Assembly: GCA_001790855.1 (NCBI GenBank)
Contig: MGDH01000032.1
Location: 1 to 20,699 of the forward strand
Length of the DNA stretch: 20,699 bases
Origin: Candidatus Schekmanbacteria bacterium RIFCSPLOWO2_02_FULL_38_14
GTDB lineage: Bacteria; Schekmanbacteria; GWA2-38-11
Reading direction: 5' to 3'
Positions 7,801 to 16,579 of this stretch are shown here, piece by piece. Under the pieces are notes generated by a model. It was not told the origin of the DNA, did not search any database, and saw only the letters and a program-made list of their open reading frames with translations. The translations under genes and the position numbers were made by a program. Each line of letters starts with the position of its first letter. The stretch's first letter is position 1.

Positions 7801-8265
7801 ATGAAATGTCCTTTTTGTGGTCATCTTGAAGATAAGGTAGTTGATTCAAGGCTTGGAAAAGAAGGCAAAAGCATAAGACGGAGGCGTGAATGCCTTTCCT
7901 GCAAGGCACGTTTTACTACCTATGAAGAGGTTGAAGAGCTTCTTCCAATGGTTGTGAAAAAGGATGGGAGAAGGGAGCAATTTGACCGCCAGAAAATTTT
8001 AGCTGGCATAAAAAAAGCCTGCGAGAAGAGGCCTATTTCAATCGAAGAACTTGAAAAGCTTGTTGATGATGTGAAGCATATCTTACAGGAAAACTCAGAC
8101 AAGGAAGTACCAAGTACACGCATAGGAGAAATTGTTGTTAATAAACTTCATGAGCTTGATGAAATTGCTTATGTCCGCTTTGCCTCGGTTTATCGCCACT
8201 TCAAGGACATAAACGAATTCATGGAAGAACTCACAGGTCTTCTTAGTAAAAAAGCCAATGGCTAA
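7801..8265 (+). CDS. nrdR: Transcriptional repressor NrdR
   Basis: Zinc-ribbon/ATP-cone repressor that turns down ribonucleotide reductase genes in response to ATP/dATP. The zinc ribbon has Cys3, Cys6, Cys31 and Cys34 (MKCPFCG ... ECLSC), with the basic stretch SIRRRRECL used for DNA contact. The ATP-cone spans about residues 49-139 ([27 protein letters not shown]). Length 154 is exact for the family. AAAGGA lies 7 bases before the ATG. No ribonucleotide reductase gene or clear NrdR box is visible in this window. The stop codon overlaps by 4 bases that of the convergent transporter gene. Confidence 0.96.
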
Positions 8266-9662
8266 GCCTCAAGAATCTTAAACGCTACAGCTGAAAGGAA
8301 CCCAGCCAGCGTGCTCAGACCCACGAAGTTAGGACCACCTAAATGCACTGCCTCAGGAATCATTGTCTGTGCAATCATCGTGAGCATTGCCCCTGCGGCA
8401 ATGCCTTCAATAGCTACTTCAATTGTGTGACCCACTTCAGCACCAATTGAGTAACCCACCACTGCACCAACGGCTGTCATAACCATCAGCGATACCCACA
8501 GGACAAGAATTTTCGATGCTTTCCAGCCCTGCTCCTTCATACCTATGCTACTTGACATTGCTTCGGGGAAATTAGATAGAAACAGCCCAGCAATCAGCGT
8601 GTACGGAATGACTTCTGCAAAAGCAGGTATTCCATAAGCCATTTTTGAAGTCAATATAGCCAGAAAACCAGCACCAATGACAAAACTTTCAGGGATGCCG
8701 TCAAGAAAAATACCCAACCAGATTGCCAATGGTGCACCTGTGTGCTCCTTTGCTGCAAGCCTTATCTCAGTGGTGGTCGGCAGAGAAGTGCCTTGGCGCA
8801 AAGCATTGGCTGCCTGCGCTGCCCAATCAGCAGCTGCATGAGTAGCGACCTGTTGGTACTGGCGCAGTTCATCGAGCCGCTGGCTTGCCAGCTGTGTGGT
8901 TGTCGCCTCGAGTTCCGGCAATATCCTGCGAAGCCTATCAAAGTCTTCCTTTAGCAGCATAAAGGTAGTAGTATGGCTTCGGGCTATTGCATCCGCTGTT
9001 CGTGGCGCTCCTGTCAGCAAGGCAATCTCGCCCAACACATCACTATTAACTAAGGTTTTAAACTCTTTCCCATCCACCAATAGGGATATTTCGCCTTGTT
9101 CAATAAAATACATCCGATCACCTCTATTTCCCTGACTGAATAGTCTCTCGCCTACTTTAAAAACGACTGGTCGCAAATATTCTACAAGCATTTGTACATG
9201 CTCAGGAGGAATGCTACGAAAGAATTCAATCTGTCCCAGTCGGTGTAACATTTTCTCAGTCCTCCGCTTCCGGCGTTGACTGAGATAGGTAATAGTTGTT
9301 GCTGATTTGCGAAGATAACCGCCCTTGGCGTTTAGTAGTTGGTCAAGTACAACAAATAAAATACCGCCAAAAACACATCCAACCAGCAAAGCAACTAAAG
9401 CACTAAGTGGATTATTCCCATGAGTACCAGCATTATTATTACCCATCTCCTTTCCTATCACTGCCATTGCAGTTGGAGCTACCAGTTCTACACTCAGAGC
9501 AGCCAGAAGGGCTCCTGCGCCAAAGGCTGTAAAAGCTGCTGTAAGTCCCGGCTTAGGTTTCCAGACAATTCCAAGCATTGACCCCATTGGAAGGGATATT
9601 GCACTTAGTCCCCCTAACAGAAATGCCCAAAAGGCGTGTTCAAGAGTAAAACCCGATGTCAC
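8262..9662 (-). CDS. ZIP-like metal transporter with an inserted cyclic-nucleotide-binding domain
   Basis: A 466-residue inner-membrane protein. Three hydrophobic helices (about 9-30, 38-70, 86-108) are followed by a basic linker, a cNMP-binding domain (about 140-255) and five more helices (about 310-465). The domain carries the full phosphate-binding cassette, [13 protein letters not shown] (211-223, with the conserved Arg), and [20 protein letters not shown]. The later helices carry the ZIP-type signatures DGIPES (321-326) and SNFPEA (363-368) and a final MIPEA. The usual His residues of ZIP helices 4 and 5 are replaced by Asp321 and Asn364, so metal preference may differ or transport may be lost. 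The start is GTG with AAGGGG ahead. Base composition is GC-richer than its neighbours, suggesting transfer. Gating by cAMP or a related ligand is inference. Confidence 0.75.
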
Positions 9663-9801: not shown

Positions 9802-10245
9802 TCAAATATATTTTATTTTTAAACCATTGCCTTCATACTCTTTGACCTTTTTAGCAACGGCTGAGCGATGGCATTTCTCCGAGAAACGCTCAAAACACAT
9901 TACGCAATTTACGCCTTCGGTGACGTAACGATGCATCTCGACAATGGCATCCTGATTCTGCAACAAATATTCCGAATAAGCTTTGAAGAAATAATCATAA
10001 TCCCAATCTGCTTTTAATTTCCTGCGGATTTCATCAGGACTTCCAAGTGATTTCAAATGCACGTATTCAATATTCTCTGAGTTAAGAATTTCTTTTAATG
10101 GCGATTTAGAAAATCCTTTCTTGCGGGATAATGGAATTTTCCTCACATCAATTAAGCGGGTGATATTAAAATCTTTAAGGTGAGAAATAAATTCCCCTAT
10201 ATTTCTGCCTTCGTATCCAATTGTAAAAAGTTCGTTTGTTTTCAT
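9802..10245 (-). CDS. DUF488 family protein
   Basis: A 147-residue DUF488 protein. Family marks: LFTIGYEGRNIGEFI at the N-terminus, RLIDVRKIPLSRKKGFSK (about 30-47), the aromatic WDYDYFFKAYSEYL segment, and the Cys/His motif MCFERFSEKCHRS (about 116-128). The function is unestablished. Members often sit in defence or toxin-antitoxin neighbourhoods, as here. No Shine-Dalgarno is seen; a TTTACT-N18-TATAAT promoter inside repeat R1 lies just upstream and would leave a very short leader. A second, broken copy of the first ~44 codons lies at 11250-11381, so the gene has been duplicated locally. Confidence 0.85.
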   Translation of the reverse strand: MKTNELFTIGYEGRNIGEFISHLKDFNITRLIDVRKIPLSRKKGFSKSPLKEILNSENIEYVHLKSLGSPDEIRRKLKADWDYDYFFKAYSEYLLQNQDAIVEMHRYVTEGVNCVMCFERFSEKCHRSAVAKKVKEYEGNGLKIKYI

Positions 10246-12072: not shown

Positions 12073-13266
12073 ATGATTACGACCACGCTTTCTCAGCCTG
12101 AATCCCAACTAGGAACTGAATTCACAACATTGCTTGCCTCAGATCGCCCATATACGCGAATTATTTTCGTTTCGGCATTCACTGCGTTGAGAACCATATT
12201 GCGATTGCGCGAAGGTATGATAGCTGCGGCAGACGCGGGAGCTTCCGTTAGTTTAACCGTGGGAATCGATCTTCGCGGAACAAGTCGAGAGGTATTAGAG
12301 GAACTATATCGATGGGGTTGTGATGTGTTCGTATATCACAATCCAATACAACGTGCTACTTTTCACCCCAAAATCTACCTATTTGAGCGTGAATTGGATT
12401 CCACACTGTTCGTGGGGTCGAACAATCTCACAGACGGCGGACTTTATACAAACTACGAGGCGGCCACCCGCTATGTTTTCAATTTTCCCGCTGATACCAA
12501 TGAATATGAACGTTTGTTGCGACCAATAAGGTCATTTCTCTATCCATCGGGGCCGACTGTGTGCCGTCTTGATGCCCCGCTGATCGAAACCTTGTCAGCT
12601 CGCGGGATCCTCCCAACTGAGATTGATGCGCGTCGAAGCCGTCGCGATAGATGGGGACAGCCTTCAGCAGACGGCCAAGTTATGCCTCCAAACCCTTTTT
12701 TACCAATAGCAGTTCCACTTCCCCCCTTATTACAGAGAGATATCCGAGATGCTTTTTCACCGAAACCTCATATCGAAACACCACAAGGCGAGGCGGTAGC
12801 ACCAATCGGGTTACCACGACCAGAGGGCGTCTTGGTGTGGAGAAAGGTGTTACCACAAACCGATGCTCTTCGGGTTCGCCCAGGAAGTCACCACGTTGGT
12901 GGCGTTCGCCTTACTCAGGCAAGATTCGAAAATCCTCCAGGCCATAGAATTGACCAAACGACTTATTTTCGTGGTCTTTTCGACGACTACGATTGGGAGC
13001 CAGAGGCCAGCGGACATACCGATCAAGAGCACACATTTGTGCCAATGAGAATTATTATCCGCGGACATGACCACGGTATTCGGAATTTTGAGATCAGCCA
13101 CAAGCCCTCAGGAGAAGCTGGCCAAGACAACTACACCACAATCCTTCGATGGGGACGCAATTTTAACAACGTAATCGAGAAAGCTAATTTAACAAACACC
13201 GTCTTTTCTTTGTACGAAACCCCAAATCCCGACGCTCCTTTTTTCATCGAGATCACAAACGAATGA
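12073..13266 (+). CDS. PLD-family restriction endonuclease
   Basis: Probable restriction enzyme of the phospholipase D superfamily (BfiI/NgoFVII-like), which cuts DNA through a covalent phosphohistidine step without metal. The 397-residue protein has one HKD motif, FHPKIYLF with His98 and Lys100, then VGSNNLTDGGL (115-123), so the active site would form between two subunits, as in BfiI. An N-terminal segment, RIIFVSAFTALRTIL, matches the first strand of the PLD fold. Residues ~240-397 form a separate C-terminal region that probably recognises DNA; I cannot name its fold. AGAAGG lies 7 bases ahead of the ATG. The DNA methyltransferase follows after 61 bases. Both genes are GC-richer than their surroundings, a sign of recent transfer. 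Cleavage specificity cannot be read from the sequence. Confidence 0.82.
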   Translation: MITTTLSQPESQLGTEFTTLLASDRPYTRIIFVSAFTALRTILRLREGMIAAADAGASVSLTVGIDLRGTSREVLEELYRWGCDVFVYHNPIQRATFHPKIYLFERELDSTLFVGSNNLTDGGLYTNYEAATRYVFNFPADTNEYERLLRPIRSFLYPSGPTVCRLDAPLIETLSARGILPTEIDARRSRRDRWGQPSADGQVMPPNPFLPIAVPLPPLLQRDIRDAFSPKPHIETPQGEAVAPIGLPRPEGVLVWRKVLPQTDALRVRPGSHHVGGVRLTQARFENPPGHRIDQTTYFRGLFDDYDWEPEASGHTDQEHTFVPMRIIIRGHDHGIRNFEISHKPSGEAGQDNYTTILRWGRNFNNVIEKANLTNTVFSLYETPNPDAPFFIEITNE

Positions 13267-13327
13267 GAAAGCACTACACACTCCAGAGAGCCAATGGAAT
13301 CATGCTGTTCTTCCAGAGGGCAAGCAA

Positions 13328-14974
13328 ATGAATTTTATAGGATTAGAGTCGAGCCAAAAGCTTCGCGGGGGGTTTTATACCGATCCTGTCATTGCTTCGT
13401 TCTTGACAAGGTGGATCAAGATAGGCAATCCAACATCTATCTTGGAGCCAAGTTGTGGAGACGGGATTTTCTTGCAGATGATTGAGCAACAGGGAATTCC
13501 CGGTTTGAAGCAAGTGACTGCGTTTGAAATCGAACACGATGAAGCCGAAAAGGCGCGAAAGCGCACGCACTTACCTGTTCGCGTACTTGATCGCGATTTC
13601 CTGCGATGGTTTCTTTTTAAGGCACAAGATGAAGATAGGTTTGACGCTGTCATTGGCAATCCCCCTTTTATTCGATATCAATATCTTCCTGAAGAGCAAC
13701 AACTTCTCTCGGAGAAAATATTCGCACAATTAGGACTCCCTTTCACTAAGCACACAAATGCATGGGTACCTTTCGTGCTAGCCTCGATCAGACTTCTCAA
13801 TCCTGGCGGTAGGATCGCAATGGTCATTCCTTCAGAAATATTCCACATACCGCATGCAGCTTCTCTAAGGCGGTACCTTGCGACGCAATGTTCACGAATT
13901 CTCTTGTTCGACCCACAGGAAATATGGTTTAACGATACCCTTCAAGGAACCGTGCTCCTTCTTGCCGAAAAAAAGCGGGAGGTTTCAGGCAAGAGCAAAG
14001 GAGTTGCAGTAATTCCCATTTCTGATCGACAGGCCCTTTCTGAAAACCCTGAGCGGCAGTTTCAGCGTGCGGTATACGCCAATGGTGTAATCATAGAAGG
14101 CAAATGGATGCCAATCTTCTTGACCTCACACGAGCGTGAATTACTCGCGCAGCTACGCATTTCACCCAATGTCAAGTGTTTCTCGGAGGTTGCATCGGTT
14201 GATGTCGGGATTGTAACCGGTGCCAATAAATTCTTTTTAGTGCCCGATAAAACGGTAGAAGAGTTCGCCTTGCAACAATGGGTACACCCAATGTTTGGTC
14301 GGAGCAATCATGTGGAAGGCTTGGTATTCACAACTGATGATCATCAAGCTAACAAATCAGTTGGACTGCCATCAAATTTTCTCTGGTTTCAGGAAGAAAA
14401 TATTGAAAACCTGCCTTCAAATGTAAGACGCTATCTTGAAGTGGGGCTTAATCAACAACTGCAGAAGCGCTTTAAGTGTCGGACAAGGAGATGCTGGTAC
14501 AAGGTCCCGTCGGTCTACTCAGCACCGATTGCAATGTTGAAACGAGCACACAACTATCCACGCCTCGTTCTAAATAGGGCAGACGCCTATACGACTGACA
14601 CAGCTTATCGAATTAAGCCAATTAACATTAGATCATCTGCTTTGGTGGTTGGATTTGTAAATAGCTTAACATGTCTTACGGCTGAATTGGAAGGCCGCCA
14701 TTATGGGGGCGGTGTTCTCGAACTCGTGCCTTCAGAAATCGAGCGACTTCTTGTGCCAAAGATAGATGATTCCACAGCTGATCTAAATTCAGCAGACCAC
14801 CGATTCAGAAAGATGAAAGATGATTTAGCTTTCCTGCGCGAGCAGGACTCTCATGTTCTAGGGAAAATTGGTTTGACAAAAAAAGAGCAGATCATATTGC
14901 ATGATGCTTGTGTAAGATTGCGGAATCGACGACATCGAACTCCTTCTTCTGAAAAAGTATTGAATGAAGAGTAA
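13328..14974 (+). CDS. N6-adenine DNA methyltransferase (gamma-type, Eco57I/PaeR7I-like)
   Basis: Methylates adenine in the recognition site, protecting host DNA from the neighbouring endonuclease. Motif X-like GGFYTDP (14-20) and SAM-binding motif I ILEPSCGDG (38-46) precede catalytic motif IV NPPF (111-114), the order of gamma-type N6-adenine enzymes. GGRIAMVIPSEIF is the usual later core strand. The C-terminal half, ending in RHYGGGVLELVPSEIERLLVP, is the target-recognition region of Eco57I-like proteins. At 548 residues it is a complete enzyme with no nuclease domain of its own. AGAGGG lies shortly before the ATG. With the PLD endonuclease it makes a two-gene type II system. Its C-terminus differs from the methylase tails left at 10831 and 11153, so those came from other systems. 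Confidence 0.9.
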   Translation: MNFIGLESSQKLRGGFYTDPVIASFLTRWIKIGNPTSILEPSCGDGIFLQMIEQQGIPGLKQVTAFEIEHDEAEKARKRTHLPVRVLDRDFLRWFLFKAQDEDRFDAVIGNPPFIRYQYLPEEQQLLSEKIFAQLGLPFTKHTNAWVPFVLASIRLLNPGGRIAMVIPSEIFHIPHAASLRRYLATQCSRILLFDPQEIWFNDTLQGTVLLLAEKKREVSGKSKGVAVIPISDRQALSENPERQFQRAVYANGVIIEGKWMPIFLTSHERELLAQLRISPNVKCFSEVASVDVGIVTGANKFFLVPDKTVEEFALQQWVHPMFGRSNHVEGLVFTTDDHQANKSVGLPSNFLWFQEENIENLPSNVRRYLEVGLNQQLQKRFKCRTRRCWYKVPSVYSAPIAMLKRAHNYPRLVLNRADAYTTDTAYRIKPINIRSSALVVGFVNSLTCLTAELEGRHYGGGVLELVPSEIERLLVPKIDDSTADLNSADHRFRKMKDDLAFLREQDSHVLGKIGLTKKEQIILHDACVRLRNRRHRTPSSEKVLNEE

Positions 14975-15018: not shown

Positions 15019-15098
15019 AATCCTAAAATTATATTACTATGGAACAGGGAAAAATTGAGAAAAAACAAGATACACTGTGGGTATTAGTAGAAAAAAAA

Positions 15099-15173
<75 letters not shown>

Positions 15174-15185
15174 GTAAATATAGTG

Positions 15186-15317: not shown

Positions 15318-15893
15318 ATGTTAGAGAGTCTATATATTGCAAAATCAAAAATCAGGCAGGGTTTGCTAACTTTATTCTTCACAAATCCATCGCAAAGGTA
15401 TTATTTAAGAGAGATCCACCGTATTTTAGGCTATTCCGCTGGCAGCATAAGGAGGGAGCTTTTAAGATTCCAAAATGACAAATTATTTAATACCAATAGT
15501 GTTGGAAACCTGCTTTACTATTCATTAAATATCAGCCACCCTTTATTTAAAGAACTAAAAAGTATTGTTTCTAAAACAGTTGGTGTTGAAGGAAGCCTGA
15601 AAGAAGCATTGTCATCCGTTAAAAAGATAAAGATAGCCTTTATCTATGGTTCTTTTGCTGCAAAGCGTGAAAAGGCTATCAGCGACATAGACCTTATGAT
15701 AATAGGGGAAGCTGATATCTCTCATCTAAATGAAAAAATTATTGGATTAGAAAAAAAGCTTAAAAGAGAGATAAATCCGACAATCTATTCCTTGAAAGAG
15801 TATAGAGCTAAGAAAAGGGCTAAAAGTGGGTTCATTCTGGAGTTGTTGAAAAGCCCAAAAATAATGTTGATAGGCAAAAAAGATGATTTATAG
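15318..15893 (+). CDS. Winged-helix MNT-type nucleotidyltransferase (probable antitoxin)
   Basis: 191 residues in two parts. Residues ~10-75 look like a winged helix (SQRYYLREIHRILGYSAGSI, then RRELLRF). Residues ~85-190 are a minimal nucleotidyltransferase with the exact GS-x10-DxD pattern: Gly111-Ser112 ... Asp123, Asp125 (YGSFAAKR; ISDIDLMI). In MntA/HepT (type VII) systems the nucleotidyltransferase adds AMP groups to the HEPN toxin and so silences it. Classical MntA lacks the DNA-binding part, so this version may combine antidote and repressor in one chain. TGGAG lies 5 bases before the ATG. It overlaps the HEPN gene by 11 bases, so their translation is coupled. Confidence 0.85.
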   Translation: MLESLYIAKSKIRQGLLTLFFTNPSQRYYLREIHRILGYSAGSIRRELLRFQNDKLFNTNSVGNLLYYSLNISHPLFKELKSIVSKTVGVEGSLKEALSSVKKIKIAFIYGSFAAKREKAISDIDLMIIGEADISHLNEKIIGLEKKLKREINPTIYSLKEYRAKKRAKSGFILELLKSPKIMLIGKKDDL

Positions 15894-16353
15894 AGACTCA
15901 AAAGAAAAGCTTTCAAAAGAAGGATTAATTAAAAAATCTCCTGTTGATTACAAGGCTATAGAGAACCTGATGAAGAGAGCGTATATTGACCTAAAAACAG
16001 CTAAGAGGAATATAGAGGATGACCAAGAATGTGCTTATAACTGTGCCTATAATGCCATGTTACGCTCTGGGCTTGCTTTAATGTTTAGCGAAGGATTCAG
16101 GCCAGAAATTAAAGATAAGCATCTAACTATTGTTAGATTTGCAAGTTCAGTTTTAGGAGATGAGTTTGAAAAACTTATTAACAATTATGATTTCATGAGA
16201 AGAAAAAGGCATCGCTTTATCTATGAACCTGATATTCCGTGCTCGAGAAAAGAAGCTGAAGATGCTATAAATACTGCTGAGGAATTTGTTAGTAAAATTT
16301 CTAAACTAATAAGAGAAAAGATGCCGCAAAAAGAGTTCAACTTTAAAAAATAA
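15883..16353 (+). CDS. HEPN-domain protein (probable toxin RNase)
   Basis: 156 residues, mostly helical: a HEPN core at about 22-145 (YKAIENLMKRAYIDLKTAKR; CAYNCAYNAMLRSGLALMF). The usual HEPN catalytic signature R-x4-6-H appears here as RRKRH with a following Tyr (FMRRKRHRFIYEP; Arg106, Arg107, His110, Tyr114), i.e. a shorter arginine-histidine spacing than in HepT (RX4HXY). The enzyme may therefore use a variant site, or may have a role other than RNA cleavage. It is coupled to the nucleotidyltransferase gene ahead of it. Toxin function is inferred from the pairing; AMPylation of Tyr114 is a testable guess. Confidence 0.8.
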   Translation: MIYRDSKEKLSKEGLIKKSPVDYKAIENLMKRAYIDLKTAKRNIEDDQECAYNCAYNAMLRSGLALMFSEGFRPEIKDKHLTIVRFASSVLGDEFEKLINNYDFMRRKRHRFIYEPDIPCSRKEAEDAINTAEEFVSKISKLIREKMPQKEFNFKK

Positions 16354-16389
16354 AAGGTCTCCTTATCAATAGATTATTTTATAAAAAAA

Positions 16390-16464
<75 letters not shown>

Positions 16465-16579
16465 GGATTAATAAAAAGGCAATAGGCAATAGGCAAAAGG
16501 CATTAGGCAAAAGACAAAAATTATTTAATCTCCAATTTTTTCATTAAGCTAATTAACATTTTGATATTTTCAACTTGTA

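What the first reader, a model, noticed from the sequence alone, without database searches (positions are those of the whole stretch)
8262..9662. ZIP-like transporter with a cyclic-nucleotide sensor in its central loop
The phosphate-binding cassette ([13 protein letters not shown]) is complete and lies exactly where ZIP proteins have their variable loop between helices 3 and 4. Metal-site His residues of ZIP are replaced by Asp and Asn. A ligand-gated metal carrier, or a membrane sensor derived from one, is possible. GC-rich composition suggests it arrived by transfer.
Basis: partly seen in the sequence, partly recalled or inferred. Interest (0 to 1): 0.6.

Follow-up and report, generated by a model that had tools for sequence, protein, structure and literature searches.

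The report
ZIP-fold metal carrier carrying cAMP-type sensor
The gene encodes a membrane protein with the fold of ZIP metal transporters whose cytoplasmic loop, the place where known ZIPs sense zinc, has been replaced by a cyclic-nucleotide sensor; hundreds of bacteria carry the same fusion, and it has apparently never been studied.

Summary
Confirmed and extended. ORF 8262-9662 (-) is a real 466-aa protein. Residues 1-112 and 310-466 form an eight-helix ZIP fold (AlphaFold2 model against BbZIP: Z 23.6, 256 residues, 3.2 Å). Residues about 135-272 form a cyclic-nucleotide-binding domain (CNBD; Pfam E 2.8e-16) with an intact phosphate-binding cassette, sitting between TM3 and TM4. The fusion is an old family: 282 relatives encoded in GTDB genomes; all 80 kept loci carry it, across about 17 named phyla. 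A sister group of CNBD-less ZIPs (~250 aa) shares its unusual DGIPES/SNxPE metal motif. Against BbZIP, M1 keeps both glutamates (E325, E367), His177 becomes Asp321, and M2 is dismantled. In BbZIP this loop is the zinc autoregulation loop and joins scaffold TM3 to moving TM4; here a CNBD occupies it. Best explanation: a cyclic-nucleotide-controlled elevator-type divalent-cation transporter. The host encodes class III cyclases. About half of the family has lost the cassette arginine while the CNBD stays under purifying selection, so ligand use is not uniform. Transport, metal and ligand are untested. No paper on this fusion was found.

The parts
8262..9662 (-). ZIP-CNBD fusion protein, 466 aa, GTG start
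   Evidence: ORF; full-length homologues in 80 kept loci
9327..9644 (-). TM1-TM3 (residues 7-112), first part of the ZIP fold; L52 (equivalent of BbZIP M99) and D107 (equivalent of M3 Asp144)
   Evidence: AF2 model, VIA alignment to BbZIP; M99 and D144 equivalences read by eye; conservation
9261..9326 (-). Basic linker from TM3 into the CNBD (residues 113-134; G114, R118, K119 nearly invariant; the GxxxRK element is also in CNBD-less relatives)
   Evidence: conservation, charge count, unfused sequences
8847..9260 (-). Cyclic-nucleotide-binding domain (residues 135-272) inserted in the TM3-TM4 loop
   Evidence: Pfam E 2.8e-16, model helices/strands 119-273, VIA Z about 20 to HCN2/HCN4, MloK1 and SthK CNBDs
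8988..9032 (-). Phosphate-binding cassette [15 protein letters not shown] (residues 211-225; E212, R221)
   Evidence: sequence, family comparison, cassette consensus in PMC2246266
8268..8735 (-). TM4-TM8 (residues 310-465), second part of the ZIP fold
   Evidence: AF2 model, HMM hit to BbZIP E 7e-6
8685..8702 (-). TM4 motif DGIPES (residues 321-326): D321 at BbZIP His177, G322 at Asn178, E325 at Glu181
   Evidence: HMM alignment; D321 in 82/82, E325 in 81/82 members
8559..8576 (-). TM5 motif SNFPEA (residues 363-368): S363 at Gln207, N364 at Asp208, E367 at Glu211
   Evidence: HMM alignment; N364 and E367 in 82/82 members

Best explanation
A ZIP-fold, elevator-type divalent-cation transporter whose TM3-TM4 loop has been replaced by a CNBD. 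In BbZIP, TM1/4/5/6 carry the metal and slide against static TM2/3/7/8, and the TM3-TM4 loop folds back and senses cytoplasmic zinc. Here the CNBD ties scaffold helix TM3 to mobile helix TM4, so cyclic-nucleotide binding (C-helix closure) is proposed to lock or release the elevator and tune cation uptake. In this protein the ligand is most likely cAMP made by the host's class III cyclases. The metal site is all-oxygen (D321, E325, E367, with S363/N364 nearby), so a harder cation such as Mn2+, Mg2+ or Fe2+ is more likely than Zn2+. Shown: fold, domain, position, conservation, cyclase genes. Inferred: transport, substrate, ligand, direction of regulation.
For: ZIP fold Z 23.6 over 256 residues and TM4-8 HMM hit to BbZIP. 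CNBD with intact Glu/Arg cassette in this protein. M1 carboxylates invariant or nearly so in 82 members, so the site is under selection. The linker carries 10 basic and 1 acidic residues and the BbZIP loop is cytoplasmic, placing the CNBD where cAMP is. BbZIP TM3-TM4 loop as zinc autoregulator (PMC10256678); domain assignment TM1/4/5/6 against TM2/3/7/8 (PMC9873690); M1 is the transport site (PMC11549095). Own genome has 3 Guanylate_cyc proteins; in the two read, the metal, base-specifying (Lys, Asp/Thr) and transition-state (Asn, Arg) residues are present (my reading). CNBD dN/dS 0.05-0.13 in close pairs.
Against: No transport or binding data. The canonical M1 His and the M2 ligands are gone. 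About half of the family lost the cassette Arg (R in 37 of 82), so cNMP control is not a family-wide property. The stretch between CNBD and TM4 is of low confidence (273-296), so coupling geometry is unknown. No conserved cyclase neighbour; only one locus has a cyclase-like gene within the same flank, and DUF3095 beside L067 has no demonstrated cyclase activity.
Confidence: 0.55

Rival explanations
1. A membrane receptor (transceptor): the ZIP part binds but does not move a cation, and the CNBD passes the state on to other proteins, such as the ion channels or antiporters encoded nearby in some relatives.
For: Canonical M1 His and M2 ligands lost. Upstream voltage-gated-type channels in a betaproteobacterial lineage and Na+/H+ antiporters, PiT carriers or a CitMHS carrier beside others.
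Against: M1 Asp and first Glu are kept also in CNBD-less relatives and M1 Asp/Glu/Glu are essentially invariant in the fused ones; small-residue helix motifs such as [11 protein letters not shown] are kept; neighbours are not conserved between lineages.
Confidence: 0.18
2. The CNBD is ligand-free and serves as a structural or docking domain, as the CNB homology domain of KCNH channels does (established knowledge, not tested here).
For: Cassette signature intact in only 34 of 74 tree members, at least 10 changes on the tree, while the CNBD stays under purifying selection in cassette-less pairs (dN/dS 0.05-0.12).
Against: This protein, its closest relatives and most early-branching members keep Glu and Arg; the loss looks derived.
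Confidence: 0.15
3. The CNBD senses another small ligand (cCMP, cUMP, a nucleoside or other), not cAMP.
For: CNBDs with changed pockets bind other ligands: trypanosomal PKA regulatory CNBs bind nucleosides (PMC10959531, abstract) and a PycTIR CNBD binds cUMP (PDB 8jsk).
Against: Canonical cassette close to that of bacterial channel CNBDs ([17 protein letters not shown]); host encodes adenylate-type class III cyclases.
Confidence: 0.12

Closest known systems
BbZIP (Bordetella bronchiseptica ZIP; PDB 5tsa, 8ght, 8czj)
   Same: Eight-TM ZIP fold (Z 23.6), TM4 P-E and TM5 P-E glutamates of M1
   Different: CNBD instead of the His-rich zinc-sensing TM3-TM4 loop; His177 to Asp321, Gln207 to Ser363; M2 ligands Asn178/Asp208/Glu240 to Gly/Asn/Thr; M99 to Leu; M3 His149/His151/Glu276 lost; 22% identity
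CNBD-less 'ZIP family zinc transporter' of Deinococcus, Haladaptatus, Rhizobium, Pantoea (about 250 aa)
   Same: Same DGIPES and SNxPE-type motifs, same GxxxRK element after TM3
   Different: No CNBD; a short loop instead; their separation from the fused proteins is supported at 97/85 in the careful tree
Cyclic-nucleotide-gated channels (HCN, SthK, MloK1)
   Same: Membrane protein controlled, or presumed controlled, by a cytoplasmic CNBD; nearest CNBD structures (Z about 20)
   Different: Channel fold with a C-terminal CNBD; here the CNBD is inserted inside a carrier fold
CNBD fusions to MFS carriers and cation:proton antiporters
   Same: Regulatory CNBD attached to a transporter (MFS: PMC10710835; antiporter: locus L139)
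   Different: In L139 the CNBD match is at the C-terminal end of an unrelated fold; here it splits a ZIP fold

Membership tests
ZIP (SLC39) transporters | Eight-TM ZIP fold | tested here: met
   BbZIP Z 23.6, 256 residues, 3.2 A; TM4-8 HMM E 7e-6
ZIP (SLC39) transporters | Pfam Zip curated cut-off reached by this protein | tested here: not met
   17.5 bits against 35.1; 50 of 75 relatives match at E 0.01 or better
ZIP (SLC39) transporters | HNxPEG on TM4 with the M1 His | tested here: not met
   DGIPES; Asp in 82 of 82
ZIP (SLC39) transporters | M1 glutamates on TM4 and TM5 | tested here: met
   E325 81/82, E367 82/82
ZIP (SLC39) transporters | Second metal site M2 (Asn178, Asp208, Glu240) | tested here: not met
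   G322, N364, T396
ZIP (SLC39) transporters | His-containing TM3-TM4 loop site M3 | tested here: not met
   Loop replaced by CNBD; Glu276 position is T433
ZIP (SLC39) transporters | Transports a divalent metal | not testable with these tools
   needs an uptake assay
Cyclic-nucleotide-binding domain | CNBD fold and Pfam cut-off | tested here: met
   59.7 bits against 27.5; Z about 20 to HCN2/HCN4 CNBDs
Cyclic-nucleotide-binding domain | Cassette Glu and Arg | tested here: met
   E212, R221 in this protein; Arg kept in 37 of 82 relatives
Cyclic-nucleotide-binding domain | Binds a cyclic nucleotide | not testable with these tools
   needs a binding assay

The most novel reading that the evidence does not exclude
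A widespread, uncharacterised family of carriers in which a cyclic nucleotide directly gates an elevator-type transporter: the CNBD links the static and the moving half, and has replaced the zinc-sensing loop of ordinary ZIPs, putting uptake of a hard divalent cation under second-messenger control.
Probability: 0.4. Interest if true: 0.75.

Novelty: new variant of a known kind. Interest (0 to 1): 0.52.

Why it matters
If cAMP gates it, this would be a direct link between second-messenger signalling and divalent-metal uptake, and a natural switch for an elevator transporter built by swapping the autoregulatory loop for a sensor. The family offers built-in controls: members with and without the cassette, and a sister group without the CNBD.

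Tried and rejected
Phage records gave no match and no plasmid record covers 80% of the query, so the fused form is not a phage or plasmid gene in those collections. A fixed operon partner was sought across 80 loci: none is conserved between lineages. A cyclase neighbour as a general rule was rejected. DUF488, upstream here and upstream of a CNBD-less ZIP in Rhizobium sp. BG4, is not near the fused relatives. DUF3095 beside L067 found no solved relative. An independent origin of the fusion in different phyla was rejected as unneeded: one change of state suffices, but bootstrap of the fused clade is only 57, because the place of the root is unsure. Pairwise dN/dS for distant or very GC-rich pairs was ignored as saturated.

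Full report
Observation. The ORF at 8262-9662 on the minus strand encodes 466 aa from a GTG. Pfam finds cNMP_binding at 166-244, E 2.8e-16, and only a weak Zip match. PDB sequence searches hit PKG, PKA-R, SthK and HCN CNBDs.

Family. Two full-length relatives (47% and 41%) came from 60 genomes sampled around the host. A scan of GTDB species genomes with their alignment found 282 encoding places; the best 80 were kept, and all 80 show the same order TM1-3, CNBD, TM4-8 (L063 is split by a frame change). They span about 17 named phyla, with Pseudomonadota and Bacteroidota the most frequent. In a second set of 386 genomes, eight besides the host have a match of the fused type (E below 1e-45, reading frames of about 430-490 aa), three have a CNBD-less match (E about 1e-30, 248-274 aa) and seven have ordinary ZIPs (E about 1e-13). 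CNBD-less relatives on plasmids are annotated 'ZIP family zinc transporter' or 'hypothetical protein' and share LLDGIPES, SNxPE-type and the RK element after TM3.

Structure. An AlphaFold2 model from 75 sequences has mean pLDDT 85.9; only 273-296 is under 50. Foldseek lists CNBDs first because they dominate; VIA-align puts eight BbZIP entries on top (Z 21.4-23.6, 221-256 residues, spanning model 1-466), then HCN2/HCN4 and other CNBDs (Z about 20, residues 121-273). The protein is therefore a ZIP fold split by a CNBD.

Metal site. The HMM alignment with BbZIP gives D321 = His177, G322 = Asn178, E325 = Glu181, S363 = Gln207, N364 = Asp208, E367 = Glu211, T396 = Glu240; L52 = Met99 and D107 = Asp144 are read by eye. 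Across 82 members D321, N364, E367 and L52 are invariant and E325 is 81/82. M1 is thus kept as a carboxylate site and M2 is gone. In BbZIP M1 is the transport site (PMC11549095). In human ZIP8 a Glu at the TM5 His position goes with a broader range that includes Mn and Fe (PMC10372143), which makes a harder cation plausible here; this is inference.

Position of the sensor. In BbZIP the TM3-TM4 loop carries His149 and His151 and with Asp144 and Glu276 forms a zinc site that inhibits uptake (PMC10256678). TM1/4/5/6 move against TM2/3/7/8 (PMC9873690). The CNBD sits in that loop and joins a static to a moving helix. The Glu276 position is Thr or Ala in this family. Replacement of the zinc-sensing loop by a CNBD follows directly from the alignment; that it works as a nucleotide sensor is inferred.

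Ligand. The cassette of this protein, [15 protein letters not shown], is close to that of bacterial channel CNBDs (PMC2246266). The host genome has three class III cyclase domains, two of which I read as catalytically intact, and three CNBD proteins in all. The cassette signature is present in 34 of 74 tree members, with at least 10 changes on the tree. In closely related pairs CNBD dN/dS is 0.05-0.13 with or without the cassette, so the domain has a role even without it.

Evolution. Fused and CNBD-less proteins separate with one change of state (CNBD-less group 97/85, fused group 57/83). The nearest relatives of the window protein are from Latescibacterota and Nitrospirota (74-78% identity); three other genomes of the order lack it; GC is 47.5% against 32-41% for housekeeping neighbours, and the Nitrospirota copy also stands out from its flanks (55.7% against 43.0%). 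Horizontal transfer is likely.

Context. Neighbours differ between lineages but include cation-flux genes: Ion_trans channels directly upstream in a betaproteobacterial lineage and two related loci, PF07399 Na+/H+ antiporters (L058, L064), PiT-type carriers (L046, L095) and a CitMHS carrier (L066, with a similar protein at L071). No enrichment test was made.

Novelty. Searches of the held papers found CNBD fusions to MFS carriers (PMC10710835) but none to ZIP; the 2007 survey of CNB domains does not mention ZIP. Absence from an open-access library is not proof of novelty.

Noticed in passing
window 12073-14974: Probable restriction-modification pair: a PLD-type protein with a weak NgoFVII-like match and an Eco57I-like methyltransferase, GC 45-49%, atypical for the window.
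   Followed up: partly
window 15318-16353: Nucleotidyltransferase (Polbeta) overlapping a second small ORF, looks like an MNT/HEPN toxin-antitoxin pair; the second ORF was not searched.
   Followed up: no
window 15098-15174 and 16389-16465: Two tRNA-Asp(gtc) genes on the same strand 1.2 kb apart beside the variable genes; possible island boundary.
   Followed up: no
window 9802-10245: DUF488 gene 139 bp upstream of the fusion gene, same strand; in Rhizobium sp. BG4 a DUF488 gene lies upstream of a CNBD-less ZIP (L106), but not near the fused relatives.
   Followed up: partly
L133, L135, L136: CNBD-less relatives on plasmids lie beside msrA/msrB and, in two of the three, cytochrome P460 genes, hinting at a link with oxidative stress.
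   Followed up: no
L065, L075, L080, L085, L087, L090, L092, L098, L102: One or several Ion_trans-type channel genes directly upstream of the fusion gene, three in tandem in most.
   Followed up: partly
L067 1051-2247: DUF3095 gene 2 bp upstream of the fusion gene; sequence hints at a cyclase-like domain, unproven.
   Followed up: partly
L139: Cation:proton antiporter of Phyllobacterium with a CNBD match at its C-terminal end.
   Followed up: no
L063 5995-7381: Fusion gene split into two overlapping frames, either a frameshift or a sequencing error.
   Followed up: no
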